Source: Runella sp.
GTDB taxonomy: Bacteria; Bacteroidota; Bacteroidia; Cytophagales; Spirosomataceae
Length of the DNA stretch: 64,000 nt
Reading direction: 5' to 3'
Assembly: GCF_027484545.1 (NCBI RefSeq)
Contig: NZ_JAIXST010000151.1
Coordinates: 1 to 64,000, forward strand
The notes under the pieces are model-generated. The model searched no databases. It was not told where the DNA came from and worked only from the letters and a program-made list of their open reading frames with translations. A program made the position numbers and the translations under genes. This document shows positions 1 to 12,149 of the stretch, in pieces (position 1 is the stretch's first letter; every line of letters starts with the position of its first letter).

Positions 1-2
1 AA

Positions 3-182
3 GTAGTTCTAAGTCGAGCTTGGAAGGCAAAAGGAAGGGAGAGTCCATTCTTCAAAATTACAACCCAAACCCTGACTTTCACCAAATGTGACGATGAACC
101 ACGTTCACGCCATTTTACAGGATATGCTATGTCAATGAAAAATTTGGAAGAATTATTGGCAACTTTATCGCAATCCCGATAG
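3..182 (+). CDS. C-terminal fragment of an unidentified protein (runs off the left edge)
   Basis: An open frame enters from the left edge and stops with TAG at 180-182, giving 59 residues. The composition looks coding, with a charged helix-like C-terminus (MKNLEELLATL). I do not recognise the family. The stop codon lies inside a perfect palindrome (173-192), so the natural C-terminus may have been altered by that repeat. The start is outside the window, and the gene could be intact or a remnant. Confidence 0.4.
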   Translation, partial: VVLSRAWKAKGRESPFFKITTQTLTFTKCDDEPRSRHFTGYAMSMKNLEELLATLSQSR

Positions 183-192
183 ATATCGGGAT
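173..192. repeat. 20-bp palindrome ATCCCGA-type
   Basis: ATCCCGAT, a four-base spacer AGAT, then ATCGGGAT: a perfect 8-bp inverted repeat. It overlaps the stop of the left-edge frame and precedes the remnant frame that follows. A relative with the same ATCCCGA/TCGGGAT arms lies inside the XRE-regulator gene at 32974-32992, which suggests a dispersed palindromic mini-repeat rather than a dedicated terminator. No T-tract follows. Confidence 0.6.
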
Positions 193-193
193 C

Positions 194-328
194 GTTTTCA
201 AAACATCTGTCCAAACTAAAGTGCAGATAAAGAAGCTAAAACCGCATATTGACCAAAGACTGCCAAACGCAAAATGGAATTTTGACCTTGAAGACATCGA
301 TAAAATTAACAGACATGGCACTTATTAA
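194..328 (+). pseudogene. Remnant of a small HMA-like protein
   Basis: Frame 194-328 encodes about 44 residues of the pattern VFKTSV...KLKPHID..LP.AKWNFDLEDIDKI. This resembles small Bacteroidota proteins that look like heavy-metal-associated domains (a ferredoxin-like fold with a characteristic WNFDLEDxDxIL segment). No ATG, GTG or TTG sits where the family would start. The C-terminus is cut off and runs into the start of the VOC gene (ATG at 315). The palindrome at 173-192 sits exactly where the start should be. I read it as a decayed gene; family membership is from memory of the motif and is uncertain. Confidence 0.35.
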
Positions 329-743
329 TCCTTACATTCACTTCAACGGAAATGCCGAAGAAGCATTCACCTTTTACAAATCAGTATTTGGCGGAGAATT
401 TACAAAAATGCTGCGTTACAAAGACCTGTCAAGCCCTGACTATCCGATACCTGAAAATGATGCCAATCGTTTGATGCACATTGCCTTGCCCATTGGCAAA
501 AGTAATTCGTTAATAGGTAGTGACGTTATGGAAATGATGGGATGGGTAACGGAAAACGATAACAGAAACACCATCTCCATCAGTGCAGAGAGTCGTGAAG
601 AAGCTGATAGATTATTCAACGGGCTTTCCGAAGGCGGTGCAGTTGAAATGCCCATTACCGACGGTCCTTTCGGTTCTTACTTTGGAATGTTTGCCGACAA
701 ATTTGGTGTTCAATGGATGGTGGACTTTACCCCAAACCGTTAG
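315..743 (+). CDS. VOC-fold (PhnB/glyoxalase-like) protein
   Basis: 142 residues. The N-terminal PYIHFNGNAEEAFTFYKSVFGG and the C-terminal DKFGVQWMVDF are typical of the PhnB-like branch of the vicinal-oxygen-chelate superfamily, annotated in databases variously as glyoxalase/bleomycin resistance or 3-demethylubiquinone methyltransferase-like. Substrate and function are unknown for most members. The start at ATG 315 is chosen because the conserved ALINPYIHF begins there; an upstream in-frame start at 249 would only add sequence belonging to the neighbouring remnant. The product is cytoplasmic with no signal peptide. It is a single gene, convergent with the outer-membrane protein gene at 909-1442. 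Confidence 0.85.
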   Translation: MALINPYIHFNGNAEEAFTFYKSVFGGEFTKMLRYKDLSSPDYPIPENDANRLMHIALPIGKSNSLIGSDVMEMMGWVTENDNRNTISISAESREEADRLFNGLSEGGAVEMPITDGPFGSYFGMFADKFGVQWMVDFTPNR

Positions 744-908
744 TCAGAAAGCTAAAGGGCCGAACAAACGGATAATGGCAGACAACAATGGACAACGACT
801 GTTTGAGTTTTTGTTCGCTCAAAAGTAATTTACGTCTCCTCCAGGCGAAGGGGCAAAAGCCATGAAACAGTAAAAGTGAAGGTTGAACCGGTACTGTGAG
901 TACGATTT

Positions 909-1442
909 TTAAAAATTAAACCGTACTCCCAAACTTACCTGCGGATGCAGAAAAAAAGGTTTTGATATTAATTCCACATAAAGGCCTGTTTCTAAAAATA
1001 GCGATAGCGGACTGCTGTCAACAAAATATTCGGCTCCAGCTAAACCTGTGCCTCCCAATGAAATCTTATCGTCAGATTCGTTTTGCCCAGGAGCATTTTT
1101 CGATTCGAAATAATAGCGTCGAGAGTTGATTTGTCCGCCAAATCCGTAATAAACTCGCACTTGCTCTTTCTTGAATAAAGCTGTATGCCATAGATAGTTA
1201 GCACGAAGAGAGAAGCCGGCATTTTGATAATAACCTTTTCCGTATTTACGGTCGCGGCCATAAAACAACCCGTACGTACCCACCGACACATCAAAGGCTT
1301 TGTTGTCTCCAAAATATTTTCGTGCGTTGATACCGGAAGGCTCGCCTAATTGAAATCCGATGGCCCAGTTGTTATATTGCGCAAACAAAGGGAAAAGAGA
1401 AAAGGCAGAAAGCAAGACGGTTAAAAAAAGCTTATTTTTCAT
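909..1442 (-). CDS. Small outer-membrane beta-barrel protein
   Basis: 177 residues. A clear signal peptide (MKNKLFLTVLLSAFSLFPLFA, cleavage after Ala-Gln or thereabouts) is followed by alternating aromatic/polar strands (GTYGLFYGRD, GFSLRANYLW, RVYYGFGGQINSRRYY). It ends in a terminal aromatic strand, VSLGVRFNF, as in outer-membrane porin-like barrels. ATG 1442 is preferred over a longer frame because it begins the signal peptide. It lies 55 bases after hisC on the same strand and may be the last gene of the his transcript, but nothing ties it functionally to histidine. No specific family is recognised. Confidence 0.75.
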   Translation of the reverse strand: MKNKLFLTVLLSAFSLFPLFAQYNNWAIGFQLGEPSGINARKYFGDNKAFDVSVGTYGLFYGRDRKYGKGYYQNAGFSLRANYLWHTALFKKEQVRVYYGFGGQINSRRYYFESKNAPGQNESDDKISLGGTGLAGAEYFVDSSPLSLFLETGLYVELISKPFFLHPQVSLGVRFNF

Positions 1443-1497
1443 ATCAAGTGGGTTTGATTTATCTACATGACAACTCCGGGCGTTGAATCCCTTATTT

Positions 1498-2556
1498 TTA
1501 GGCCAAAATGGCAAACGCTTTCAAGGCGTCTACTAAAATTTTGTTCTCTTCTGCGGTGCCTACCGTTAGACGCAAACAGCCCTCGCAAAGTATCACTTTT
1601 GAACGATCTCGAACAATGATTTTTTCTTCTAATAAATACTTCATCACGGGCACGGCATCCTCAAATTGAACCAACAAAAAGTTGGAATCCGAAGGATATA
1701 TCTTTTGAACTAACGGCAAGGTAGCCAAATTCGTACGCAAACGCTCACGCTCCGCCAAAATATGGCTTACCATGCTGTTCTTGGTTTCCACATGGTCGAG
1801 CGCTTCCAACAGCAACTGCTGAGTGGCACCGCTGAGGTTGTAAGGCGGCTTGATTTTGTTCAATACTTTGATGATTTCTTCCGAAGCAAAACATATCCCC
1901 AATCGCAAAGAAGCCAATCCCCACGCTTTGGAAAAGGTTTGTAAGACCACCAAATTGGGAAAATGGTCCAATTCAGTAACAAACGAAGGCTCATCGGCAA
2001 AATCAATATAAGCCTCATCCACCACAACCAACCCGCTGAAATTGTTCAGGATTTTAATAATCGCGTCTCGTTGCAACAGATTTCCGCTGGGATTATTAGG
2101 CGAGCAGACCCAGACGATTTTTGTTTGAGGAGTGATGCCTGCCAATACCTTCTCCGTATCAATCTGAAAGTCAGGGGTGAGCGGTACTCGAACTACAGGC
2201 ACATCGTTGATATCGGCGCTTACCTGATACATGCCGTAGGTAGGCGGCATGAGCAGCATAGTATCTTTTTGGGGCGTACAGGTAGCACGGACCAACAGGT
2301 CAATGGGTTCATCGGAGCCGTTGCCCAGGAAAATCTGCAAAGGACGCACGCCTTTAATGGGGGCAAGTTTTTCTTTGATGGTCCACTGATAGGGGTCCGG
2401 ATACCGATTCCAATGCTGACCGTTTACGCTTAGATAGGGATTTTCGTTGGCATCCAAAAAGACACCTTCTTTGCCCGTATATTCATCCCGCGCCGAGGAA
2501 TACGGCACCAAATTTAAAATGTGTGGACGGAGGATTTTAGTTAAATCGAAAGTCAT
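1498..2556 (-). CDS. hisC: Histidinol-phosphate aminotransferase
   Basis: 352 residues, the normal length for HisC. It is a class-I/II PLP-dependent aminotransferase that converts imidazole-acetol phosphate and glutamate to histidinol phosphate in histidine biosynthesis. Visible motifs are LDANENPY near residue 35, WVCSPNNPSGN near 149, VVDEAYIDF near 178, and the PLP lysine in QTFSKAWG (Lys210). ATG 2556 is chosen because it opens TFDLTKILRPHI, the usual HisC N-terminus. Its ATG overlaps the ptuB stop in an ATGA arrangement, so translation is probably coupled to the nuclease gene, which is unusual for a biosynthetic enzyme. It is the last his gene visible in the operon. Confidence 0.93.
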   Translation of the reverse strand: MTFDLTKILRPHILNLVPYSSARDEYTGKEGVFLDANENPYLSVNGQHWNRYPDPYQWTIKEKLAPIKGVRPLQIFLGNGSDEPIDLLVRATCTPQKDTMLLMPPTYGMYQVSADINDVPVVRVPLTPDFQIDTEKVLAGITPQTKIVWVCSPNNPSGNLLQRDAIIKILNNFSGLVVVDEAYIDFADEPSFVTELDHFPNLVVLQTFSKAWGLASLRLGICFASEEIIKVLNKIKPPYNLSGATQQLLLEALDHVETKNSMVSHILAERERLRTNLATLPLVQKIYPSDSNFLLVQFEDAVPVMKYLLEEKIIVRDRSKVILCEGCLRLTVGTAEENKILVDALKAFAILA

Positions 2557-3230
2557 TGTGGTAAAAATTGGGAGAATTCTTTTAATAGAGTGTTGTTCTC
2601 TTGAACTATACAAATCTTGAATGCAGTAAAGGCTGATTGAGGACTTAATTTTCTGCGGATTCGTTGCTTTATTTCATTTTTCTCGTATTCCAGATACGTA
2701 TCATCAAAATAATCACTTAATAGAACTCCAAAATCTCTAATTTCTTCAATTAATTTTTGCCTGATATTAGCCCCTTCTATCTCCTTATGATTGGTAGATC
2801 CATTGTATATCATTTGGAGTAACATGACTGTATTTTGAATAATTGGCTCATCAAAACGAGCGGTTATTTTGGCTTCTTCAAAAGGAAATGGTTTTATTTC
2901 AAATCGAATCATTTCTAAAATTTTATGCTTTGGATCTGTGCAATTGAGTATTAAGTCAAATTCTTTTTTCGCCAACTTTGTATTATTACAGTGCCCGCTT
3001 GACCAAAACAGATTGTTCCAATCAAATTTTAAATCTTTATTGCCTTTGTGCGGCTTAAAATGCTCTATATTAATTGTACTAATCCCCTTTTCTTCGCAGA
3101 GATAACATTTGTTGTGAAAATCGTTTTTGAGTCTTAGCTCAACATCATCGCAAGCATAACTGCCATCTTTTTTAGATTTCTCAATTTCTAAGCATTTAGG
3201 CTCGGGTTGAGAACGAACAATATTAATCAT
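2553..3230 (-). CDS. ptuB: PtuB-like HNH endonuclease of a Septu-type defence pair
   Basis: 225 residues. The central HNH-type motif is CYLCEE (Cys42, Cys45), then NIEHFKPHKG (His57, His61), then FDWNNLFWSSGHCNNTK (Asn72/73, His80-Cys81-Asn82). It matches the HNH proteins paired with an AAA ATPase in Septu and in the effector module of retron Ec78. In those systems the ATPase and nuclease form a complex that cleaves nucleic acid on phage infection. Its ATG overlaps the ptuA stop (TAATG) and its stop overlaps the hisC start (ATGA). No reverse transcriptase is nearby, so plain Septu is the better reading. Family assignment is strong; anti-phage activity here is inferred. Confidence 0.82.
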   Translation of the reverse strand: MINIVRSQPEPKCLEIEKSKKDGSYACDDVELRLKNDFHNKCYLCEEKGISTINIEHFKPHKGNKDLKFDWNNLFWSSGHCNNTKLAKKEFDLILNCTDPKHKILEMIRFEIKPFPFEEAKITARFDEPIIQNTVMLLQMIYNGSTNHKEIEGANIRQKLIEEIRDFGVLLSDYFDDTYLEYEKNEIKQRIRRKLSPQSAFTAFKICIVQENNTLLKEFSQFLPQ

Positions 3231-4411
3231 TAGGCCAATTTTGCTAATTTTATTTGTTGGATTTTAACTTGCAATTCAGGAGCTAAAAATTTAGGTAGTT
3301 CTTCAAAATACTTTTCAAGGAAATATAGTTTATCCGATTCATCATCATTTAAAACATCTTTTCCCATCAAGATCTCATATTCAGAAACTTGTCCTTTTAA
3401 TTTCTCGGAGTATTTATCTTGCTCAAAATAACCTTCAATAATTCCATCTGCTGAATAACCTGACAAATCACTTATCCCTATTTGCTGTTTTTCCAAATCA
3501 TAAATCACTGCATTATCAATCGAACTCAACACAAAAGGCGAATGTGTAGTAACAATGAATTGAATTTTTGGAAAGAAAGAAGTGAGAAAAGGAAGTATTT
3601 TCTTTTGTAAATCTATGTGTAAATGCGTTTCGATTTCGTCGATGAGAACAATACCTTGGAGGTCATACACTTGAGATGATTTATTTTCCATTCTCATAAT
3701 GAGTTCTGAGACTATATCTAATATTGCAGCATAACCATCAGATAAATCAGTTAAATCAAACGAATCTCGATCTGGCAATTTTATTAGAAAATTGTAATTA
3801 AACCCTTTGCGGTCAAAACTCGTTTTTAAATTTGGCTCTCCAAAAATATCTTTCAATAAGTCCTCAAACTTTGTAAACCAAGTATCAATTTGACGAACCT
3901 TTTCGTAATCGTTTTCTTCGTGTGCAAATGATTTTTCTGTTCTTAAATAAACTAAGTAATCTAAAAAGATTCTATTTGCTGTTTCATGTTGGTGATAATA
4001 ATCATTAATATTTATTTTCTTTATGGATTCTGAGCGATGATATTCAGGTTTACGTTTTGCCTTAAAGAAAGCAATAACAAATTCTTCTTTTGTTACTTTT
4101 TCTGGAAGTAATTCTACTTTATTGAAATAAAAAAAAGCATCCTCATTATCGTTAATATTAGTGCCGTATTGGATAATATCTTCTATTTTATCTGTATTAC
4201 CTGAATCTATTTCATTCTGAACAAATTGCAAATTCGATAAATATATTAAATATAAACGTTCATTCAGCGCCTCCAAAATACTCGTCTTTCCACTCCCGTT
4301 CTTCCCCGTTAAAATCAAATGCTTACGCTCAGTTTCGGATAATGGAATTTCGAGATTCTCCAAATGGCGAACCTTGTTGATGCGGAGTTTGGTGACAAAT
4401 ATCTCTTCCAT
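3230..4411 (-). CDS. ptuA: PtuA-like AAA/ABC-type ATPase of a Septu-type defence pair
   Basis: 393 residues. The N-terminal LRINKVRHLENLEI strand and Walker A GKNGSGKTS (residues 36-44), a serine-aspartate-rich LTDLSDGYAAILDI signature-like region, Walker B IVLIDEIETHLH and the switch histidine in FIVTTHSPFVLSS place it in the RecF/SMC-like AAA_15/AAA_21 group. Paired with a downstream HNH gene it fits PtuA. It sits between hisD and hisC. A 96-base gap separates it from hisD, and a weak -7-like TATACTTG (4425-4432, minus strand) lies just before it, so some independent transcription is possible. The A+T content looks higher than in the flanking his genes, which would suit transfer, but this was judged by eye only. 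Confidence 0.82.
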   Translation of the reverse strand: MEEIFVTKLRINKVRHLENLEIPLSETERKHLILTGKNGSGKTSILEALNERLYLIYLSNLQFVQNEIDSGNTDKIEDIIQYGTNINDNEDAFFYFNKVELLPEKVTKEEFVIAFFKAKRKPEYHRSESIKKININDYYHQHETANRIFLDYLVYLRTEKSFAHEENDYEKVRQIDTWFTKFEDLLKDIFGEPNLKTSFDRKGFNYNFLIKLPDRDSFDLTDLSDGYAAILDIVSELIMRMENKSSQVYDLQGIVLIDEIETHLHIDLQKKILPFLTSFFPKIQFIVTTHSPFVLSSIDNAVIYDLEKQQIGISDLSGYSADGIIEGYFEQDKYSEKLKGQVSEYEILMGKDVLNDDESDKLYFLEKYFEELPKFLAPELQVKIQQIKLAKLA

Positions 4412-4449
4412 AGCGCTATTTATTCAAGTATATTGCAATTTACTACGCT

Positions 4450-4502
4450 CGTTTGCATTTGCAATGCGAACGCGGCGAGAAGGGCGTTTCAAACGCCCTT
4501 CT
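4450..4502. repeat. Two consecutive hairpins between hisD and ptuA
   Basis: 4450-4472 forms CGTTTGCATT / AATGCGAACG around a 3-base loop, with one G-T type mismatch. 4478-4502 is a perfect 12-bp inverted repeat, AGAAGGGCGTTT, C, AAACGCCCTTCT. Read on the minus (operon) strand neither is followed by a T-run, so they are more likely a mobile palindrome pair, or an mRNA-processing or partial-termination structure, than a full terminator. They fill most of the only sizeable gap in the operon. Confidence 0.6.
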
Positions 4503-4507
4503 TAAAA

Positions 4508-5776
4508 TTATTTCAAACTGCTCAAACGCAAACTCACGGCTCGCTTGTGGGCATGGAGAGATTCTGCTTCGGCCATGGCTTCTACCGTGGGACCCAAGGC
4601 TTTAAGACCTTCGGGGGTGATGTGTTGCACCGTAATTTTCTTTACAAAACTATCCAACGATACGCCGCTGTACGCCCGAGCGTGGCCGTTGGTCGGCAAG
4701 GTGTGATTTGTTCCCGAAGCATAATCGCCGCAGGATTCGGGAGTGTAATTTCCTAAGAAAATAGACCCGGCGTTGATGATTTTTTCACTGATTTCTTCGG
4801 CGTTATCTACGCTTAAAATCAAGTGCTCGGCCGCGTATTCGTTCAATAAATCAATGGCTTCGGCTTCATTTTCTACCAAAATGGCCTTGCTGTTTTCAAT
4901 GGCTTTTCGGGCCAATTCCCTGCGCGGCAGATTTTCCAATTGGGTGGTAAGCGTAATGTTAACCGATGCAATGAATTTTTTGTCCGTCGAAACCAACAGC
5001 ACTTGGCTATCGGCTCCGTGTTCGGCCTGTGACAATAAATCGGCAGCGACAAACGACGGAATGGCGGTACTGTCGGCATAAATCGCCACTTCCGACGGCC
5101 CCGCCGGCATGTCAATGGCGACTCCTTCTTTGGCCAAAAGCATCTTGGCTGCCGTTACGTATTGGTTGCCCGGTCCAAAAATTTTATACACTTTCGGAAC
5201 GGACTCGGTTCCGTACGCCATGGCCGCAATCGCTTGTGCGCCACCTACTCTGAATAGCTTGGTAACACCCACCAACTGCGCGGCGTACAAAATCGCTGGG
5301 TGGTCGCTGGGGGTACAAAGCACAACTTCTTTGCAACCCGCCAACTGTGCCGGGACACCCAACATCAAAACCGTACTGAAAAGCGGTGCGGAACCTCCCG
5401 GAATGTATAATCCCACTTTCTCAATCCCCACGCTGCGCCGCCAACAGGTGACACCTGACATCGTTTCCACTTTCTCCACTGGTTGGTACTGGGTTTCGTG
5501 AAATTTACGAATATTGGCATACGCCTGCCGAATGGCTGCTTTCAGTTCTTCTGTCAATTTGGATTCTGCGGCCTCTACAACTGCTTTTGGCATCGAAATC
5601 TCAACGAGTTCGGTTTTGTCAAATTTCAACGCAAGTGCTCGCAATGCAGCATCTCCTTCTTTTTGCACTTTGGCAAGAATAGGAGCGACGTCTTTTTCGA
5701 TGTTTGCAATGCTTTGCGTAGGTCGAGCCAGTAATTTTGGCCATTCACTGCGACTGGGGTAGGGTATAATTTGCAT
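4508..5776 (-). CDS. hisD: Histidinol dehydrogenase
   Basis: 422 residues, full length. It is a zinc-dependent enzyme that makes the last two oxidations from histidinol to histidine with NAD. Recognisable family blocks are GLYIPGGSAPLFSTVLMLG, RVGGAQAIAAMAYGT, KIFGPGNQYVTAAK, IDMPAGPSEVAI, LLSQAEHGADSQ and the C-terminal SCGDYASGTNHTLPT. The zinc and catalytic residues of the family fall in the AEHG and GTNH segments. The start ATG at 5776 lies only 7 bases after the antitoxin stop, so it is in the same transcript as hisG and the toxin-antitoxin pair. Confidence 0.95.
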   Translation of the reverse strand: MQIIPYPSRSEWPKLLARPTQSIANIEKDVAPILAKVQKEGDAALRALALKFDKTELVEISMPKAVVEAAESKLTEELKAAIRQAYANIRKFHETQYQPVEKVETMSGVTCWRRSVGIEKVGLYIPGGSAPLFSTVLMLGVPAQLAGCKEVVLCTPSDHPAILYAAQLVGVTKLFRVGGAQAIAAMAYGTESVPKVYKIFGPGNQYVTAAKMLLAKEGVAIDMPAGPSEVAIYADSTAIPSFVAADLLSQAEHGADSQVLLVSTDKKFIASVNITLTTQLENLPRRELARKAIENSKAILVENEAEAIDLLNEYAAEHLILSVDNAEEISEKIINAGSIFLGNYTPESCGDYASGTNHTLPTNGHARAYSGVSLDSFVKKITVQHITPEGLKALGPTVEAMAEAESLHAHKRAVSLRLSSLK

Positions 5777-5783
5777 AATTAGC

Positions 5784-5993
5784 TTAAAAGAGACCTAATT
5801 CTTTTTTCATTTCTTCGTGAGAAACCCATTCCTTATTCTCCCGTTTTACCTTTTGTAAGTAAAGAAAATCCGTCAAATCTTCCACTGAATCAAAACCTCG
5901 AAGTAACTCTTCTAACGAAGCATAATCTTTGTAGGAAATAACCGCGAATTTAGGTTGATCATCCTCTTTTATGATTTGGGCTTGTAGTGTCAT
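5784..5993 (-). CDS. Antitoxin of a RelE-type toxin-antitoxin pair
   Basis: 69 residues, beginning MTLQAQIIKEDDQPKFAVISYKDY. The 'datapoint for a beta-strand then YKDYxxLEELL' pattern and the acidic C-terminal half resemble Phd/YefM-like or RelB-like antitoxins of Bacteroidota. It would bind and neutralise the toxin encoded directly upstream and probably autoregulates. It overlaps the toxin stop by four bases (ATGA), and the order is toxin first. It sits 7 bases before hisD. The antitoxin assignment rests mostly on partner and size. Confidence 0.75.
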   Translation of the reverse strand: MTLQAQIIKEDDQPKFAVISYKDYASLEELLRGFDSVEDLTDFLYLQKVKRENKEWVSHEEMKKELGLF

Positions 5994-6250
5994 TGGTATA
6001 TGTCTTTACGATGTCCAACATCTATCACATCAATAATTTTAAGTGTATCTTCCCTATCAAATAATACCCGATAGTTTCCAACTCTTAAACGATAACTGGA
6101 TACAAAGTTATGAAGTGTTTTAACATTTGTTTTTAACTCAGGGGCTTCGGCAAGCTGCTCAATGGCCTCAATAATGCTCAAAACATCGGACTTAGGAAAA
6201 TCCTTCAAACTTTTTACTGCTTTTTTTGTATACCTGATCCGGTAAGCCAT
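5990..6250 (-). CDS. RelE/ParE-family toxin
   Basis: 86 residues, with the hallmark arrangement of RelE-like mRNA interferases: MAYRIRYTKKAVKSLKDFPK at the N-terminus, a helical middle, then SSYRLRVGNYRVLFDRED and a C-terminal VIDVGHRKDIYQ. In RelE the basic and aromatic residues in the YRLRVGNYRVLF and HRKDIY segments act in ribosome-dependent mRNA cleavage; ParE relatives poison gyrase, and sequence alone does not decide between them, though GHRKDIY favours RelE. It begins 10 bases after hisG and overlaps its antitoxin. It is embedded in the his operon in the same orientation. Confidence 0.85.
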   Translation of the reverse strand: MAYRIRYTKKAVKSLKDFPKSDVLSIIEAIEQLAEAPELKTNVKTLHNFVSSYRLRVGNYRVLFDREDTLKIIDVIDVGHRKDIYQ

Positions 6251-6260
6251 ACCTAAAGTA

Positions 6261-7115
6261 TCAATAAATCATCTTCTCAATCGGAATCACCAAAATTCCT
6301 TCGGCACCGGCTTCGCGGATTTTTTCAATATTGGTCCAAAAATCATTTTCATTGATGACCGAATGAAGCGATACCCAACCTTCCGTTACCAAAGGTAACA
6401 CGGTCGGTGCTTTCATGCCGGGAATGTATTGCATGATTTTTTCAACCGCATCGGCAGGGCAATTGAGCAGGATGTATTTGTTGTTTTGGGCTGCCTGCAC
6501 CGCTTTGATGCGGAACATGACTTTGTCGAGCAACACTGCTTTTTCTTCGCTCAAATTGGGAGCAGCTATCAAGATAGCTTCCGAGCGATAAATCACTTCC
6601 ACTTCTTTCAATCCATTGCTCAACAGCGTACTTCCCGAACTGACAATGTCACAAACGGCATCGGCCAATCCAATACTGGGAGCGATTTCGACTGAGCCGC
6701 TGATTTCGTGAATATCGGCTTCTACGCCGTTCTCTTTTAGGTAATTGCCCAAAATGCGCGGATAGGAAGTAGCGATGCCGCGACCATGAAGGTCCTGTAC
6801 GCCATTCCATTGGGTGCCACGAGGAATAGCCAACGACAAGCGGCACTTTGAAAACCCTAATTTATGCACGACAGTCACTTCACGACCCGTTTCTACGTAC
6901 ACATTTTCGCCCACGATTCCCAAGTCGGCCACGCCGTCTTCTACGTAGCCCGGAATGTCGTCATCGCGTAAGAATAAAAATTCGGCGGGGAAATTGGCGG
7001 AAATAGATTTTAGTTTACCGGAAGAACTGCTGTCAAATTGAATACCGCATTCTTTGAATAATTTGATGGAATCATCGCTGAGACGTCCTGATTTTTGAAT
7101 GGCAATGCGTAACAT
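6261..7115 (-). CDS. hisG: ATP phosphoribosyltransferase (long form)
   Basis: 284 residues, the length of the long HisG form that carries its own C-terminal histidine-binding regulatory domain and needs no HisZ. It catalyses the first step of histidine biosynthesis, joining ATP and PRPP. Visible blocks are MLRIAIQKSGRLSDDS, FLRDDDIPGYVEDGVADLGIVGEN, RIATSYPRILGNYLKENG-type PRPP-loop sequence, and EISGSVEIAPSIGLADAVCDIVSSGSTL. ATG 7115 is chosen at the conserved N-terminus; the longer frame adds unrelated residues from the leader. It is the first enzyme gene of the operon and lies behind a His-rich leader peptide (7236-7298). Confidence 0.95.
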   Translation of the reverse strand: MLRIAIQKSGRLSDDSIKLFKECGIQFDSSSSGKLKSISANFPAEFLFLRDDDIPGYVEDGVADLGIVGENVYVETGREVTVVHKLGFSKCRLSLAIPRGTQWNGVQDLHGRGIATSYPRILGNYLKENGVEADIHEISGSVEIAPSIGLADAVCDIVSSGSTLLSNGLKEVEVIYRSEAILIAAPNLSEEKAVLLDKVMFRIKAVQAAQNNKYILLNCPADAVEKIMQYIPGMKAPTVLPLVTEGWVSLHSVINENDFWTNIEKIREAGAEGILVIPIEKMIY

Positions 7116-7190
7116 GAATTTGGAGTGAGGGGTGAAAAGTGAGTAGTGACACTGAGTCACTGCACGCTTAAAAGTATAAGTAAGTTTAAT

Positions 7191-7258
7191 GAAAACGCAT
7201 GAGCTGCATCAGTAAATCACGCGAAGGAAAAGTATCTACGCTCGCCCGCAGGCGTGAT
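7191..7258 (-). promoter_or_regulatory. Attenuator-like leader structures of the his operon
   Basis: On the transcript three segments compete. A (7252-7258, ATCACGC) lies in the last His codons and the next codon. B (7216-7223, CGCGTGAT) is complementary to A over seven bases. C (7196-7202, TCATGCG) pairs with B over seven positions including one wobble and is followed by TTTTCATT (7195 downward). A:B and B:C exclude each other, as in classic attenuators. The T-run makes B:C look like the terminator, which would invert the classic logic unless another pairing exists. A further hairpin (AGTGAC/GTCACT, 7145-7161) lies closer to hisG. Confidence 0.5.
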
Positions 7259-7298
7259 GGTGGTGATGTCGAAAAAAAGCGTAGTTCTGTGTTTTCAC
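7236..7298 (-). CDS. hisL: His operon leader peptide with five consecutive histidine codons
   Basis: A 20-codon frame with a GTG start (7298-7296) and a TAG stop (7238-7236) encodes MKTQNYAFFRHHHHHACGRA. The five His codons CAT CAC CAC CAT CAC are consecutive (7268-7254). It begins about 25 bases after a good Bacteroidota promoter and ends 120 bases before hisG. Runs of the regulatory amino acid in a short leader frame are the signature of transcription attenuation sensed by ribosome stalling on uncharged tRNA. There is no strong Shine-Dalgarno, as is usual in this phylum. The frame is seen directly; the regulation is inferred. Confidence 0.8.
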   Translation of the reverse strand: MKTQNYAFFRHHHHHACGRA

Positions 7299-7322
7299 GA
7301 AGAATTGTACAAATTGATGCTG

Positions 7323-7353
7323 CAAATGTAGGGGAGCCACGCAGGATTGTCAA
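7323..7353 (-). promoter_or_regulatory. Promoter of the his operon
   Basis: On the minus strand TTGACA (7353-7348), a 17-base spacer and TACATTTG (7330-7323) match the Bacteroidota -33 TTG / -7 TAnnTTTG pattern exactly. Transcription would start about 5-7 bases downstream, near 7317, leaving a leader of roughly 200 bases before hisG that contains the His leader peptide. Confidence 0.7.
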
Positions 7354-7377
7354 GGATTTGTACAAAAAAAGCAGAAT

Positions 7378-8358
7378 TTACCCTAAAACAACCCCCAAAT
7401 TCAGTTTTTGGGCTTTTCGGACCAGATAGCTTGCTACGGCTAAATCCTGAGCGGCATTGCCGACGGATTTAAAAACTGTTATTTCACCCGAAGAGGCACG
7501 TCCTGGTTTTGTTCCCAATACAATTTCTCCCAATTCAGCAAAAATAGAATCAGCTTCAAAAAGCCCTTCCTGAATGGGTAAAACTACATCGCCTGCTTCG
7601 GCTAACGCAGCGCTCCGTTGGTCAACTACTATTTTAGCGCTTTGCATGGTAAGTCCTGGAATTTCGCGGGCATCCGAACGATAAGAGCCAACGCCGTTGA
7701 TATGAACGCCTTTTTTTAGGTATTGATGTTCAAAAACGGGAACGTTGGAGGTAGTAGCCGTGCAAATAATGTCGGCTTCGAGCAGTTGTTTGGGCTGAGA
7801 GGCAGCTTCCACGTTAATGCCCAATGTATTTTGCATTTCGATACAAAATGCCTCGGCCTTGGCCGTATTTTTTCCAAAAACCAATACTTTTTCCAGCGAA
7901 CGAACTGCCGCGACTCCTTTTACTTGAGTTCGTGCCTGCGCACCGGTTCCAAAAACAGCCAGAACACTTGCGTCTTTTCGTGCCAACAAATCAGTTGCTA
8001 ATCCGGACGCAGCGCCCGTCCGCAAAGCCGTTAAGTATTCTGCATCCAAGAGTGCCAACGGTTGCCCGTTTGTTCCGTCCATGATTAGCATCAGCCCGTG
8101 AATCAATGGAAGGTTTTGGATAGGGTTATCTCGAAAAATAGTCACCATTTTCAAACCCACCGCTTCTGTGGATGGCAGGTACACTGGCATAAACAAGGTT
8201 TGGGCATTTTGCTCCGGTTGCGGCAAATTGACCCGCAAAGGCACCACCGCCTCCCCCGACGAAAGACTCCGAAAAGCATCTTTCATCAGTTCGATGGCTT
8301 CCGACATGGTAAGAGCTTCTTCAACAACTTGGCGAGAGAAATAACGGAGAGTTTCCAT
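7378..8358 (-). CDS. Ornithine-cyclodeaminase-family enzyme, probable delta1-pyrroline-2-carboxylate reductase
   Basis: 326 residues of the OCD/mu-crystallin family. It has the substrate-binding N-terminal part (PLRVNLPQPEQ, LFMPVYLPS), KMVTIFRDNP, LLDAEYLTALRTGAASGLAT, and the Rossmann glycine motif VFGTGAQARTQ, then GVGSYRSDAREIP and VVDQRSAALAEAGDV. Family members reduce cyclic imino acids or deaminate ornithine. The adjacent gene 45 bases upstream is a trans-3-hydroxy-L-proline dehydratase whose product is delta1-pyrroline-2-carboxylate, so reduction to L-proline (LhpI-type) is the best assignment. ATG 8358 (METLRYFS) is preferred to a start 12 bases earlier. The stop at 7378 lies just upstream of the his promoter. 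Confidence 0.8.
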   Translation of the reverse strand: METLRYFSRQVVEEALTMSEAIELMKDAFRSLSSGEAVVPLRVNLPQPEQNAQTLFMPVYLPSTEAVGLKMVTIFRDNPIQNLPLIHGLMLIMDGTNGQPLALLDAEYLTALRTGAASGLATDLLARKDASVLAVFGTGAQARTQVKGVAAVRSLEKVLVFGKNTAKAEAFCIEMQNTLGINVEAASQPKQLLEADIICTATTSNVPVFEHQYLKKGVHINGVGSYRSDAREIPGLTMQSAKIVVDQRSAALAEAGDVVLPIQEGLFEADSIFAELGEIVLGTKPGRASSGEITVFKSVGNAAQDLAVASYLVRKAQKLNLGVVLG

Positions 8359-8403
8359 TGGATAGAACACTGATTTTTAAGATTCTTATGATTGGTTAAG
8401 CCG

Positions 8404-9459
8404 TTACCTCAGAAAAAATCCCTTTCCCAACTCGTCGTCGGGGTCGAGTAAAAAAGTGTTTTTCCCACAAATATGGGCATTGCCTTCTACTTCGGGAACG
8501 ATGGCTTCGTGTGGACCAAACGTAGTTATTGATTTGACCGAAGCTACGAATTTACTGCCAACAATACTCTCAATCACCATCGGTTGCCCCACCGCTAATT
8601 CTCCGCGTGCATGATGCAACGCTACCCGCCCGCTTACGCCCGTTCCTGTGGGGCTTCGGTCCACTTCGCCGTCGGCAAAAATGCAGACATTACGGCTGTC
8701 AGTGCCTTCAGAATGTCCTTTACCGTAAAATATAGTTCCGTAAAGAAAACTTAAATCCGGCTCAAACGGATGAACAATTTCAAATTGCTCCATAACCGCG
8801 TTTTTGATGGCCATTCCTTTTTCAATCAACGTGCGGTAATCGGCCATGGTCATCCCAATTCCTAATTTATTCGCATCCACGTAAGCATAAAAAGCCCCGC
8901 CGTAGACCACATCAAACAGCACATCTCCCAAGCCTTCTACAAATAGGATTTGGTCTTTGAGCAGTACAAATGAAGGAACATTTTCAAATTTGACGGATTG
9001 AACACAGCCGTTATTGATGTTGGCGAATGCTGTAATTAAACCGGCAGGTGCATCAATCCGGACTGTAGTGACGGGTTCCATTGGCTGAATCAAACCTAAT
9101 TCAACGGCTACTTTGGTAACTGCGATAATTCCGTGACCACACATGGAGCTGTAGCCTTCATTATGCAGGAAAATGACCCCAAAATCTGCGTTTTCGGTCA
9201 CGGGTTCGGTAAGGATACAACCGTACATATCGGCATGACCGCGCGGCTCCCACATCAACGCTTTCCGCAGGTAATCAAGGTTGTTTTTCAAGAAAGCGCG
9301 ACGTTCCAAAATTGTTTTTCCTTCAATAACGGGCAGCCCACTCGTAATAATTCGCAAAGGTTCGCCGCCCGTGTGAGCATCAATCGCGGTGATTTGGAGC
9401 CAATGAGGAGGTGGATTCCAAAGATTTAGGGAAGCGAGGCGTTCAGAAAAAGAAATCAT
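8404..9459 (-). CDS. trans-3-hydroxy-L-proline dehydratase (proline-racemase fold)
   Basis: 351 residues of the proline racemase superfamily. The first catalytic Cys is present in SSMCGHGI (Cys107). The second catalytic position, Cys in proline racemase and hydroxyproline epimerase (SPCGTG), is Thr271 in RSPTGTGVSGR. Cys plus Thr is the known signature of trans-3-hydroxy-L-proline dehydratase (human C14orf149/L3HYPDH), which forms delta1-pyrroline-2-carboxylate. The other family blocks IDAHTGGEPLRI and MWEPRGHADMYG are intact. It is followed on the same strand by the probable reductase that would complete conversion to L-proline. It diverges from the Gly/Tyr-rich secreted protein at 9541. Confidence 0.88.
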   Translation of the reverse strand: MISFSERLASLNLWNPPPHWLQITAIDAHTGGEPLRIITSGLPVIEGKTILERRAFLKNNLDYLRKALMWEPRGHADMYGCILTEPVTENADFGVIFLHNEGYSSMCGHGIIAVTKVAVELGLIQPMEPVTTVRIDAPAGLITAFANINNGCVQSVKFENVPSFVLLKDQILFVEGLGDVLFDVVYGGAFYAYVDANKLGIGMTMADYRTLIEKGMAIKNAVMEQFEIVHPFEPDLSFLYGTIFYGKGHSEGTDSRNVCIFADGEVDRSPTGTGVSGRVALHHARGELAVGQPMVIESIVGSKFVASVKSITTFGPHEAIVPEVEGNAHICGKNTFLLDPDDELGKGFFLR

Positions 9460-9485
9460 AAAAATAATCCTGTGTTGTACTATTT

Positions 9486-9514
9486 TTGAAAGTGAGTCGA
9501 AATAACTAAATTTC
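9486..9514 (+). promoter_or_regulatory. Possible promoter for the Gly/Tyr-rich secreted protein gene
   Basis: TTG (9486-9488), 18 bases, then TAAATTTC (9507-9514), one base off the TAnnTTTG consensus, 27 bases before the ATG at 9541. It is in the divergent gap with the hydroxyproline dehydratase gene. Weak evidence. Confidence 0.35.
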
Positions 9515-9540
9515 GGACACTTTCCTAAAAAACGTACAAG

Positions 9541-10011
9541 ATGAAAATAGGTATTTTACCATTTAGCGTATTCATAACTCTTTTAATAAGCTATCAGTCA
9601 ATGGCTCAATATGGGGGCTACGGCGGTGGCTATGGCGGCTACGGTGGTGGATACGGTCGTAACAGTGCGATGAACCAACTCCCTCAAACACCCAAAAAGC
9701 CACCTACCTCTGATCAAATTGCGGAAGAACAAACCAAGTGGATGAACAAAAAATTGAAGCTTACGGAAGATCAGGCAATATCCATAGAAATGGCCAATTT
9801 GGACCATGCTTTACAGTTGAGCGATTACCAAGAGGCATTTATGAAAACCCACGCTAACATACGCCCGACACCGCAGGAAATTCAACAGATCAGAACGACC
9901 GTTGATAAATGGCAGGCAGACAAAGACGCTAAATTTCAGACCATTCTGACTCCTGAACAGTGGGAAATTTACCAAAAGAAAAAGAAAGGGATGCCCCATA
10001 CGACTCAATAA
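9541..10011 (+). CDS. Secreted protein with a Gly-Tyr repeat and a Spy/CpxP-like helical region
   Basis: 156 residues. The signal peptide (MKIGILPFSVFITLLISYQSMA) is followed by a low-complexity Gly-Gly-Tyr segment (residues 23-39, YGGYGGGYGG repeated). An alpha-helical region follows with LKLTEDQAISIEMANLDHAL and FQTILTPEQWEIYQKKKK, the paired LTxxQ-like pattern of periplasmic Spy/CpxP-type or Bacteroidota 'LTEDQ' proteins. These relatives are envelope-stress chaperones or sensors; function here is unknown. It stands alone, convergent with the D-amino-acid dehydrogenase gene 9 bases downstream. Confidence 0.7.
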   Translation: MKIGILPFSVFITLLISYQSMAQYGGYGGGYGGYGGGYGRNSAMNQLPQTPKKPPTSDQIAEEQTKWMNKKLKLTEDQAISIEMANLDHALQLSDYQEAFMKTHANIRPTPQEIQQIRTTVDKWQADKDAKFQTILTPEQWEIYQKKKKGMPHTTQ

Positions 10012-10020
10012 AGGCCTGAT

Positions 10021-11268
10021 TTACGTAAACCGCAATGGATTAAAAGCATTGATATTCATTGCGGGGATTTTACCGGTCACTACCTCTGAAACGAGTTTAC
10101 CCGTGGCTGGCCCCAGACTGACTCCCATCATGCCGTGTCCCGTGGCGAGAGTGACGTTATCAAACCCTTTGACCCTTCCAATGTAGGGCAGGCCGTCGGG
10201 AGAACAGGGGCGCAGGCCGCTCCATACTTTTTCTTTTTCAGGCAGAGCCACTTCGATTTCGGGGTAATAATTGTTAATGCCCTGCACTATCCCCCTGACC
10301 CGGTTCATGTTGACGGTCAAATCCGTTCCGGCCACTTCCAGCGTACCGGCAAAGCGCAAATCACCACCCATAGGAGTAGCGGTGGCACGCGCTTCGAGCA
10401 TAATGGCAGGGACTTCAATGTTGTTTTTTACGTTTTTAAGCATAAAACTGTACCCTTTTCCTCCCTGTAAAGGCAACGAAATGCCCAGTTTCTCCGTTAA
10501 AATCGGAGACCAGGCACCGGCAGCAATGATAAGTTCTTCGGTTTCATGTTTGCTGTTTGCCGTTTGAACCGCCGTTATTTTATTACCTTTTCTCTCAAAG
10601 CCAATGACTTCTTCGTTTTCCAGTACGTTGACACCTTGCTTTTTTAAGTAAGCCAACAGGTTTTTAATCAACAAATTAGGAGTAATATGAGCATCGCCAG
10701 GGTAATACACGCCTCCTCTTACATCTACGCGTATGTGAGGTTCGAGGGCTTGTACCTGTTGGCCGTTCAGAATTTCTGCAACTACGCCCGCACGGTTAGC
10801 CAAATGAGCTTCTTCGGCCATTTCGTGTTCGGTGTCGGCATTTTTATACAGCATCAACAATCCGCGCTCGTGCCAGCCAAAATCGACCTCTCCCGAGGCT
10901 GCTAATTCTTGAAACAACGTTTTACTCAACAGACTGATGTCCCGTAAAATAGGAATGGAGCGCTGTACGTGTTCTTCGGTCGAATGTTTCCAAAACAACA
11001 TCCCCCAACGCATCAAATCTAAACTCAATCGTGGTTTTACGTAAAATGGACTGGTGGATTTGAGCATCCATTGTAGGCCTTTGGAAATCATTCCTGGTTG
11101 AGCCAAGGGTACGATGTGGCTCGGAACAATCATCCCCGCGTTTCCAAAAGAACAGCCGTCAGAAAAATTGCCTTGTTCAATAATAGTGACCTGATGCCCT
11201 GCTTTTTGAAGGTAATAAGCCGAAAACAGGCCGCTTACGCCACCTCCGATGATTGTAACTGAGTTCAT
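10021..11268 (-). CDS. FAD-dependent D-amino-acid dehydrogenase (possibly acting on D-hydroxyproline)
   Basis: 415 residues of the DAO/DadA family. It has the N-terminal dinucleotide-binding motif VTIIGGGVSGLFSAYYL (Gly8-Gly9-Gly10-x-x-Gly13), CSFGNAGMIVPSHIVPLAQPGM, a central oxidase fold, and the C-terminal FAD segment WSGLRPCSPDGLPYIGR ... ATGHGMMGVSLGPATG. It oxidises a D-amino acid to an imino acid and passes electrons to a quinone or oxygen. The neighbouring 3-hydroxyproline genes and the 2-oxoglutarate-semialdehyde dehydrogenase elsewhere in the window suggest cis-4-hydroxy-D-proline as a possible substrate, but no epimerase or deaminase for that route is visible here. Confidence 0.82.
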   Translation of the reverse strand: MNSVTIIGGGVSGLFSAYYLQKAGHQVTIIEQGNFSDGCSFGNAGMIVPSHIVPLAQPGMISKGLQWMLKSTSPFYVKPRLSLDLMRWGMLFWKHSTEEHVQRSIPILRDISLLSKTLFQELAASGEVDFGWHERGLLMLYKNADTEHEMAEEAHLANRAGVVAEILNGQQVQALEPHIRVDVRGGVYYPGDAHITPNLLIKNLLAYLKKQGVNVLENEEVIGFERKGNKITAVQTANSKHETEELIIAAGAWSPILTEKLGISLPLQGGKGYSFMLKNVKNNIEVPAIMLEARATATPMGGDLRFAGTLEVAGTDLTVNMNRVRGIVQGINNYYPEIEVALPEKEKVWSGLRPCSPDGLPYIGRVKGFDNVTLATGHGMMGVSLGPATGKLVSEVVTGKIPAMNINAFNPLRFT

Positions 11269-11303
11269 TCTTTTTGTTAGTTGGGATGTCGAATTTTCGG
11301 GGT

Positions 11304-11311
11304 CAAAGTTA
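11304..11311 (-). promoter_or_regulatory. -7 element for the D-amino-acid dehydrogenase gene
   Basis: Minus strand TAACTTTG matches TAnnTTTG exactly, 36 bases before the ATG at 11268. No clear TTG is found 20 bases further upstream, so only half of the promoter is supported. Confidence 0.4.
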
Positions 11312-11396
11312 CAACGCTCCTCGGGAGTTTCGGTAGGCTATTTTTGATGAATTTTGATAAAATATTGACTTATCCTAAAGGAGTTATTTTATAAAA

Positions 11397-12149
11397 TTGC
11401 TTGCCTTGTTCAGATTTGTCGTATTTTTTGCTAAACAGGGCAACAGATTTCCGATTGTCATTGAAAAAACGAAACCGTATCTCGACGCTGTTAAAGTAGT
11501 TTCCAACGATAAAGAATTGCCCATTCGAGTTGTTTTGGATGTTAGAGCAGGTCATGCGTTGATGTTGAACACCTCCATCAATAATTTACAACTTCCCCAA
11601 AAAGTAGTAAAAGCACAGTTGGGCGTAGGATTGGCAGGGGTTATTAACGGCCACATTGGGCGTGTGCCTAAAGTGCGCATTGGTAATTATGAACTGACCG
11701 ACGTACTGACCACTTTTTCCGACAGCAGTGCATTTGGGGTGAAAATCACCGATCAATTTCCCCAAAGAGACAGCAATTTAGGAGGGGAGTTGTTGAGCCG
11801 TTTTAAGGTGACTTTCAATTACGAAGCGGGCTATATCGTCTTAAAACCTAACAAAAGACGATTTAAAGATGCTTTTGAACACGATATGAGCGGAATGGAC
11901 GTGCGAGCTAAGGGAAATGGTTTTCGGCAATATTTTGTGGCCAATGTGGTCGAAAATTCACCGGCGTTTCTGGCAGGGTTGCAGGAAGGGGATGAGTTGC
12001 TTTTTATCAACAATGAATCGGTGGAAGAACTCGCGCTGTCAGAACTGTATCAACGGTTTCAGCGCAAAGAAGGAAAAGAAATGCACGTGGTTGTGCGCAG
12101 TAACGGGCGGTTGGTATCGGCCGATTTTGTGTTGAAACGTTTTATTTGA
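11397..12149 (+). pseudogene. N-terminally truncated aspartyl-protease-like/PDZ protein
   Basis: About 250 residues are open from a TTG at 11397; an in-frame TAA at 11376 closes the frame upstream. Residues 18-160 match the second half of Bacteroidota retropepsin-like proteins, including GLAGVINGHIGRVPKVRIG and NLGGELLSRFKVTFNYE. Residues 160-250 form a PDZ domain (NVVENSPAFLAGLQEGDELLFINN). The family normally has a signal peptide, a first protease-like half and a D-T/S-G catalytic motif. Here the whole N-terminal half is missing and the expected DTGA reads DVRA (VVLDVRAGH). A 5' deletion with loss of the active site is the simplest reading. Confidence 0.7.

What the first reader, a model, noticed from the sequence alone, without database searches (positions are those of the whole stretch)
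5784..6250. RelE-type toxin-antitoxin pair sits between hisG and hisD with almost no spacing
The toxin begins 10 bases after hisG, overlaps the antitoxin by ATGA, and the antitoxin ends 7 bases before hisD. The pair therefore has no room for a private promoter or terminator and must share the his transcript. The order toxin-then-antitoxin is less common for RelBE. The toxin's expression would rise with his operon transcription, the opposite of what a self-contained addiction module needs.
Basis: partly seen in the sequence, partly recalled or inferred. Interest (0 to 1): 0.7.

Follow-up and report, generated by a model that had tools for sequence, protein, structure and literature searches.

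The report
Toxin-antitoxin pair inside histidine operon
A foreign-looking toxin-antitoxin gene pair sits without a recognisable promoter of its own inside the histidine-making operon of a Runella bacterium, and many related bacteria keep toxin-antitoxin or anti-phage genes in the same operon, some of them inherited along with it.

Summary
In detail: on the minus strand, hisG - 10 nt - RelE-fold toxin (86 aa) - ATGA overlap - antitoxin (69 aa) - 7 nt - hisD. The genome is a Runella (Spirosomataceae). The pair is AT-rich, absent from the 12 other Runella genomes searched, and has no Bacteroidota-type consensus promoter; the only one found lies before a hisL-like leader (five His codons) upstream of hisG. 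The antitoxin weakly resembles Phd/YefM without its first ~21 profile positions, so classical self-repression is unlikely. Close relatives are also toxin-first; two sit 3-11 nt behind ftsY.

The wider pattern matters more. In the family, TA or Septu genes or remnants were found between hisD and hisC in 36 of 107 genomes, every match in the his sense, against none at trpD-trpC. His-operon RES toxins form one clade among 54 and track hisD: long-term residents. One Runella-clade MAG carries three TA-like modules plus Septu in one his locus; this window has Septu between hisD and hisC.

Toxicity and co-transcription remain untested.

The parts
7323..7354 (-). putative his promoter, CTTG-N20-TACATTTG (Bacteroidota type)
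   Evidence: only consensus hit on the minus strand between 7420 and 5650; aligned in congeners
7236..7298 (-). hisL-like leader ORF, GTG start, MKTQNYAFFRHHHHHACGRA, five consecutive His codons (7268-7254)
   Evidence: a His-codon run in such an ORF in 8 of the 13 Runella genomes examined, window included
6261..7115 (-). hisG, ATP phosphoribosyltransferase
   Evidence: TIGR00070, PF01634
5990..6250 (-). RelE-fold toxin, 86 aa
   Evidence: PF05016 1.3e-11, TIGR02385 1.3e-7; Foldseek best 1wmi_A 1.3e-6
5784..5993 (-). antitoxin, 69 aa, weakly Phd/YefM-like without the first ~21 profile positions
   Evidence: PF02604 positions 27-52 only, E 0.018 (below cut-off); homologue in G098 2.9e-4; AlphaFold2 model
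4508..5776 (-). hisD, histidinol dehydrogenase
   Evidence: TIGR00069 1.2e-151
3230..4411 (-). Septu PtuA-like ATPase
   Evidence: PADLOC PDLC00268 1.1e-108
2553..3230 (-). Septu PtuB-like HNH protein; stop overlaps the hisC start as ATGA
   Evidence: PADLOC PDLC00331 5.1e-59; sequence
1498..2556 (-). hisC, histidinol-phosphate aminotransferase
   Evidence: TIGR01141 1.6e-104

Best explanation
A horizontally acquired, strain-specific type II toxin-antitoxin module lives as a promoterless passenger in the his operon. Shown from sequence: the arrangement hisG-toxin-antitoxin-hisD with 10 nt, -4 nt and 7 nt junctions; a RelE-family toxin; a small acidic antitoxin that aligns, weakly, only to the part of Phd/YefM after the start of its DNA-binding region; low G+C; absence from congeners; no consensus promoter nearer than the one before the hisL-like leader. 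Inferred: the pair is transcribed from the his promoter and its amount follows a his attenuator, so it is higher when charged tRNA-His is scarce. The toxin:antitoxin ratio is fixed by translational coupling at ATGA and not by a self-binding operator. The toxin is an mRNA interferase held off by the antitoxin. Because the antitoxin probably cannot repress its own transcription in the classical way, the host operon is the regulator. The pair persists as maintenance or defence cargo in an operon family that has long carried such cargo.
For: Junctions. Toxin family and fold: (top solved relatives are archaeal and bacterial RelE: 1wmi, 2khe, 9g12, 3bpq, 3g5o). R54, R56, R61, H80, R81, K82 and Y85 are among the residues invariant in the five toxins aligned. 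Promoter scan. hisL-like leader. G+C: toxin 35.2%, antitoxin 34.8%, hisG 46.3%, hisD 49.9%, hisC 46.0%; GC3 30-31% against 52%. No match at E 1e-12 in 12 of 12 other Runella genomes. Antitoxin matches PF02604 only from profile position 27 on, in 3 of 3 homologues scanned, and its model shows three helices and a low-confidence start. Same tight coupling elsewhere: toxin ATG 3 nt (G098) and 11 nt (G038) behind the stop of ftsY (ftsY confirmed by TIGR00064). Toxin gene before antitoxin in the four other close relatives with both frames intact and in 10 of 10 more distant loci with a toxin match longer than 60 residues.
Against: No transcript, toxicity or neutralisation data. Two close relatives (G135, G087) lie 78 and 74 nt behind the upstream gene, where a private promoter would fit. 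Promoter scans by consensus miss weak or alternative-sigma promoters. The Phd/YefM matches of the antitoxin are below Pfam's cut-off, so the 'missing DNA-binding part' rests on weak alignments (E 0.018, 2.9e-4, 0.003) and on a model of medium confidence (pLDDT 72.8, six sequences). The only other Runella-clade genome with a TA-like pair at hisG-hisD (G124) has no hisL-like leader, so the site does not require the attenuator. Two more distant toxin relatives in the family (G088, G144; 44-47% identical) are antitoxin-first with a different partner, so toxin-first goes with this antitoxin type, not with the toxin family.
Confidence: 0.6

Rival explanations
1. In-operon defence island (not exclusive of the best explanation): the his operon of Spirosomataceae is a preferred address for TA and anti-phage modules, and the RelE pair is one more anti-phage cargo, kept because steady his-operon transcription gives constitutive low expression.
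For: Septu between hisD and hisC in the same operon; TA, Septu or remnants in 36 of 107 hisD-hisC gaps and TA-like pairs in 2 of 146 hisG-hisD gaps of the family; four modules in G124; none found at trpD-trpC.
Against: No phage data; several VapC-like copies are broken (G089, G126, G142) or reduced to remnants. RES and PIN modules are not shown to defend. Only one other operon junction was surveyed.
Confidence: 0.5
2. Domesticated stress switch: the pair has been recruited so that histidine starvation (de-attenuated his operon) changes growth through the toxin.
For: A hisL-like leader lies upstream, so dose should follow histidine supply.
Against: The pair was found at his in one genome only, has foreign base composition, toxin and antitoxin should rise together, and the antitoxin is not richer in His than the toxin (1 against 2 residues).
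Confidence: 0.1
3. Ordinary autoregulated relBE-type locus with a promoter hidden in the hisG 3' end.
For: Type II pairs are commonly self-regulated (PMC4803016, PMC11980606, passages); relatives in G135 and G087 have room for a promoter.
Against: No consensus promoter in hisG, and none with one mismatch in the -7 box plus a full TTTG; the antitoxin appears to lack the start of the DNA-binding region.
Confidence: 0.2
4. Neutral, decaying insertion: the toxin is inactive and the pair is on its way out.
For: Other modules in these operons decay to scars (ptuB-like ends before hisC in L025, L026, L019, L066, judged by eye) or to broken VapC-like genes; one close relative of this very toxin is broken (G126).
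Against: Both frames are intact and the ATGA coupling is kept; the toxin keeps the positions that are invariant across its relatives, although it was itself one of the five rows of that alignment.
Confidence: 0.15

Closest known systems
RelBE / ParE-RelE superfamily (PF05016, TIGR02385), archaeal RelBE of Pyrococcus horikoshii (1wmi)
   Same: toxin fold and sequence family; small acidic antitoxin encoded next to it with overlapping genes
   Different: toxin gene first, where PF05016 pairs are listed as antitoxin first (PMC11980606 Table 1); antitoxin not RelB-like by any library hit; no private promoter seen; host operon is his
Phd/YefM antitoxins (PF02604)
   Same: stretch 6-32 aligns to profile 27-52 in the window protein, 6-38 to 27-58 in the G098 homologue
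   Different: score below Pfam's cut-off; [quoted passage not shown]
Tripartite TA systems such as PaaR-PaaA-ParE, whose regulation lies in a third gene
   Same: regulation outside the antitoxin (idea recalled; the systems are named in the PMC4803016 passages)
   Different: no third TA gene here; the host operon's promoter would do the job
Xre-RES (ParST / MbcTA-like) modules of the same family's his operons
   Same: TA module inside the his operon, sense strand
   Different: other toxin family, hisD-hisC junction, inherited with the operon
Septu (PtuAB)
   Same: second cargo in this window's his operon
   Different: anti-phage ATPase plus HNH pair, not a TA pair; one Septu cleaves tRNA-Tyr (PMC13096335, passages)

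Membership tests
type II TA, RelE/ParE superfamily | toxin belongs to a RelE/ParE family | tested here: met
   PF05016 45.3 bits against a cut-off of 23; TIGR02385 32 against 27.9
type II TA, RelE/ParE superfamily | BECR (RelE) fold | tested here: met
   AlphaFold2 model pLDDT 74.6; Foldseek 21 matches at E 0.001 or better, the best eight RelE toxins
type II TA, RelE/ParE superfamily | adjacent, co-oriented small protein antitoxin | tested here: met
   ATGA overlap; pair kept in five other genomes of the family, one with a broken toxin
type II TA, RelE/ParE superfamily | antitoxin-first order typical of PF05016 | tested here: not met
   toxin first here and in the close relatives and in 10 of 10 distant loci with a toxin match over 60 residues; order listed in PMC11980606. 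A typical trait, not an obligatory one
type II TA, RelE/ParE superfamily | autoregulated own promoter | tested here: inconclusive
   none by consensus; not measured
type II TA, RelE/ParE superfamily | toxin inhibits growth and antitoxin rescues | not testable with these tools
   needs expression
Phd/YefM antitoxin | score over the PF02604 cut-off and complete N-terminal DNA-binding domain | tested here: not met
   15.2 bits against 29.8; profile 27-52 only
his operon under leader-peptide attenuation | leader ORF with a run of His codons between promoter and hisG | tested here: met
   five His codons
his operon under leader-peptide attenuation | alternative terminator and antiterminator hairpins that respond to charged tRNA-His | tested here: inconclusive
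   a hairpin CTACGC...GCGTAG round the His codons is in the minimum-energy fold of 7 of 9 leader stretches; no terminator test was made
Septu | adjacent PtuA ATPase and PtuB HNH protein | tested here: met
   PADLOC 1.1e-108 and 5.1e-59

The most novel reading that the evidence does not exclude
The his operon of Spirosomataceae is an in-operon defence island: TA modules and Septu are taken in between hisG, hisD and hisC, use the his promoter instead of their own, and some (Xre-RES; PIN untested) have been inherited with hisD since early in the family. Their dose is thereby tied to histidine supply. The RES toxin may have a direct metabolic tie: RES-fold toxins deplete NAD+ or inactivate PRPP synthetase (PMC12204516, passages), and HisD uses NAD+ while HisG uses PRPP (recalled). 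The RelE pair belongs to a subfamily that has given up self-regulation to ride on housekeeping operons (his, ftsY).
Probability: 0.35. Interest if true: 0.8.

Novelty: new variant of a known kind. Interest (0 to 1): 0.6.

Why it matters
Chromosomal TA modules are usually thought of as self-contained and self-regulated. Here is a clade in which TA and anti-phage modules sit inside one named biosynthetic operon, in its sense, some of them inherited with it, and in one case with an antitoxin that appears to lack the start of the DNA-binding region. It gives a testable system for whether a metabolic operon can act as the regulator of a TA module, and whether a TA module protects an operon from loss. 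My searches for the arrangement in print found nothing: searches returned no paper; others (15 of 24 listed; 1; 10 of 42 listed) were seen mainly as listings. The library holds open-licence PMC papers only, no preprints.

Tried and rejected
Recent plasmid origin: no match for toxin (E 1e-10) or antitoxin (E 1e-4) in PLSDB. RNA families: no Rfam match at gathering threshold in window 1-12000, so the leader is not a catalogued RNA. Phylum-wide his habit: outside the family only 1 of 76 collinear hisD-hisC pairs has a gap over 450 bp (G155), and that gap holds a gene whose sequence looks like an acetyltransferase (my reading, not scanned). Repeated independent insertion of RES modules: rejected in favour of one old lineage. 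Antitoxin in solved structures: no relevant hit. Starvation-coded imbalance: the antitoxin is not His-rich. Not done: a tree of the PIN toxins, dN/dS, junctions other than trpD-trpC as control, a fold search with the antitoxin model, a test of the leader for a terminator.

Full report
CHECK. The finding is exact, except that it does not say that all genes lie on the minus strand. The order is promoter, leader ORF, hisG, toxin, antitoxin, hisD, PtuA, PtuB, hisC. Toxin and antitoxin are intact and overlap as ATGA; the spacers are 10 and 7 nt.

WHAT THE PAIR IS. The toxin is a PF05016 member named RelE/StbE by NCBIfam. A profile of five family members finds six distinct solved sequences at E 0.001, all RelE or RelE-like, best P. 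horikoshii 1wmi, and the predicted model (pLDDT 74.6) matches the same structures. The antitoxin has no hit at 1e-3 in three libraries. With a loose limit it and two homologues match PF02604 (Phd/YefM) weakly, each from profile position 27 onward while starting at protein position 6 (E 0.018, 2.9e-4, 0.003; cut-off not reached). About 21 N-terminal positions are therefore missing, and no earlier ATG, GTG or TTG is in frame. Phd/YefM proteins bind DNA through their N-terminal domain (PMC4803016, passage), so ordinary self-repression is unlikely. The model of the antitoxin shows three helices and a low-confidence start (pLDDT 72.8 overall, under 50 for residues 1-10).

ORDER AND RELATIVES. Five genomes of the family carry close relatives (toxin 52-58% identical; antitoxin 49-53%), all toxin first; in one of them (G126) the toxin is broken. 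In G098 and G038 the toxin starts 3 and 11 nt after the stop of ftsY, and in G126 the broken toxin lies behind ftsY as well (all three ftsY genes over the TIGR00064 cut-off). In G135 and G087 the distance to the upstream gene is 78 and 74 nt. Against a wider claim: two more distant toxin relatives, G088 and G144, have a different antitoxin in front of the toxin. A profile of the antitoxin finds 17 of 395 Bacteroidota genomes, the window's own included. Of 19 loci fetched besides the window's, tblastn with the toxin finds a toxin match in 11; in the 10 with a match longer than 60 residues (two of them from one genome) I read it on the antitoxin's strand and before it from the coordinates. Toxin-first is thus the habit of pairs with this antitoxin and not an accident of the his site, although PF05016 pairs are listed as antitoxin first in PMC11980606 (section 5 read).

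ORIGIN. G+C is 35% in both genes against 46-50% in hisG, hisD and hisC. None of the 12 other Runella genomes has a match at E 1e-12. In 11 of these 12, hisG and hisD are 31-157 bp apart; the twelfth, G124, has a 564 bp gap with a different TA-like pair (distances between match ends, stop codon included).

PROMOTER AND LEADER. On the his strand from 7420 to 5650 the only TAnnTTTG box with a TTTG-like element 17-23 nt upstream is at 7330, before the leader; allowing one mismatch in the -7 box with a full TTTG gave nothing. The leader ORF has five consecutive His codons. Of the 13 Runella genomes examined, 8 have a run of four or more His codons in such an ORF and 5 do not (G095, G124, G129, G075, G111). 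In 7 of 9 leader stretches folded, the minimum-energy fold holds a hairpin round the His codons (one of the other two is cut short; two of the nine come from the same genome). A terminator switch was not tested.

THE OPERON AS A HARBOUR. I measured gaps in 150 genomes of the family. hisG-hisD: 146 pairs on one contig and strand; 131 gaps of at most 165 bp, 15 of 326-1071 bp. The 15 hold the RelE pair (window), a ParE-type pair (G124), Uma2 genes (5), a 101-aa protein of no Pfam family (4, one of them split), a 134-135-aa or a ~205-aa protein of no Pfam family or both (3), and nothing recognised (G066). hisD-hisC: 107 pairs; 43 gaps of 450-12,000 bp and 4 larger. I scanned the DNA of 51 of the 107 gaps, the 43 among them; the 56 not scanned (45 of at most 141 bp, 7 of 157-192 bp, 4 over 12 kb) count as none. 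Genes matching reference TA or Septu proteins are in 36 of 107: PIN toxin and/or its presumed partner in 20 (intact, broken or remnant), RES in 16 (14 with Xre partner), both in 3, Septu in 3. All 140 reference matches, Uma2 and other cargo included, were on the his sense strand. In G124 (contig of 8,159 bp, L086) the order is hisG, 71-aa protein without family, ParE, hisD, Xre/ParS, RES, DUF6364 protein, PIN, PtuA, PtuB, then the start of hisC at the contig end: three TA-like modules and Septu. It is a MAG of about 570 contigs, but these genes are on one contig.

CONTROLS. At trpD-trpC, 122 pairs lie on one contig and strand, 3 of them far apart. Of 24 enlarged gaps (211-1,343 bp) I fetched 20: 18 carry a Uma2 gene and none matches a TA or Septu reference. 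That test used the reference proteins from his operons, so a TA pair of another family could be missed, and short gaps were not scanned. Fisher's test on 36/107 against 0/119 gives 5e-14, but genomes are related, so this overstates the strength, and only one control junction was examined. Uma2 itself is thus not his-specific. Outside the family, 1 of 76 collinear hisD-hisC pairs has a gap over 450 bp (G155), with an acetyltransferase-like gene by my reading.

AGE. A tree of 54 RES proteins (16 from his operons, 38 others that I picked from the truncated list, spread over genera, six of them from genomes that also have a his copy) puts the his copies on one side of one branch, support 97/93, in 98% of bootstrap trees (the broken G126 copy was left out). 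In 21 named loci, all with RES between hisD and hisC, RES identity follows hisD identity (Mantel r 0.874, 0 of 2000 permutations as high); 17 of the 21 are Dyadobacter. RES has therefore mostly been inherited with the operon. By contrast the RelE pair is a newcomer seen in one genome. Septu was probably lost repeatedly in Runella: in G050, G063, G119 and G086 a short stretch resembling the ptuB end remains before hisC (by eye).

HOW IT MOST LIKELY WORKS. See Best explanation. Falling transcription would be the risky state if the antitoxin is short-lived, as is usual for type II pairs (recalled, not shown here).

PAPERS. PMC11980606: passages and the whole of section 5. PMC4803016, PMC11573002, PMC13096335, PMC12204516: passages only. 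All others: search listings. PMC11573002 (Dyadobacter) mentions only a HigA-HigB system. Searches returned no paper; no listing pointed to TA or defence genes in a his operon, but most listed papers were not opened and searches list only part of their hits.

Noticed in passing
window 2553-4411 (-): A Septu PtuAB pair sits between hisD and hisC; ptuB overlaps hisC as ATGA. Relatives G031 and G103 have it too; G050, G063, G119 and G086 keep only a short ptuB-like remnant, judged by eye.
   Followed up: partly
L086 (G124) 150-5647 (-): One his locus of a Runella-clade MAG holds ParE, RES and PIN type TA-like modules plus Septu.
   Followed up: partly
L187 (own genome G000, C52:15812-16488); L189-L192 and L194-L206: Uma2-family genes sit between trpD and trpC in this genome and 17 others of the 20 fetched, sense strand; Uma2 genes also sit in his operons of other genera of the family.
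   Followed up: partly
L023, L024, L086 PtuA; window 3230-4411: The first ~45 residues of PtuA look nearly identical between Runella species while the whole proteins are only 47-53% identical, which suggests exchange by recombination.
   Followed up: no
window 7236-7298 (-): hisL-like leader peptide with five His codons, present in one part of Runella (8 of 13 genomes) and not found in the rest; no Rfam family matches.
   Followed up: partly
G089, G126, G142, G091, G116, G148, G004 at hisD-hisC: PIN toxin genes broken or lost while all or parts of the presumed antitoxin remain.
   Followed up: no
L010 1475-1777 (+) and relatives in G027, G085, G102: A 101-aa protein of no Pfam family between hisG and hisD in four genomes of one genus.
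   Followed up: no
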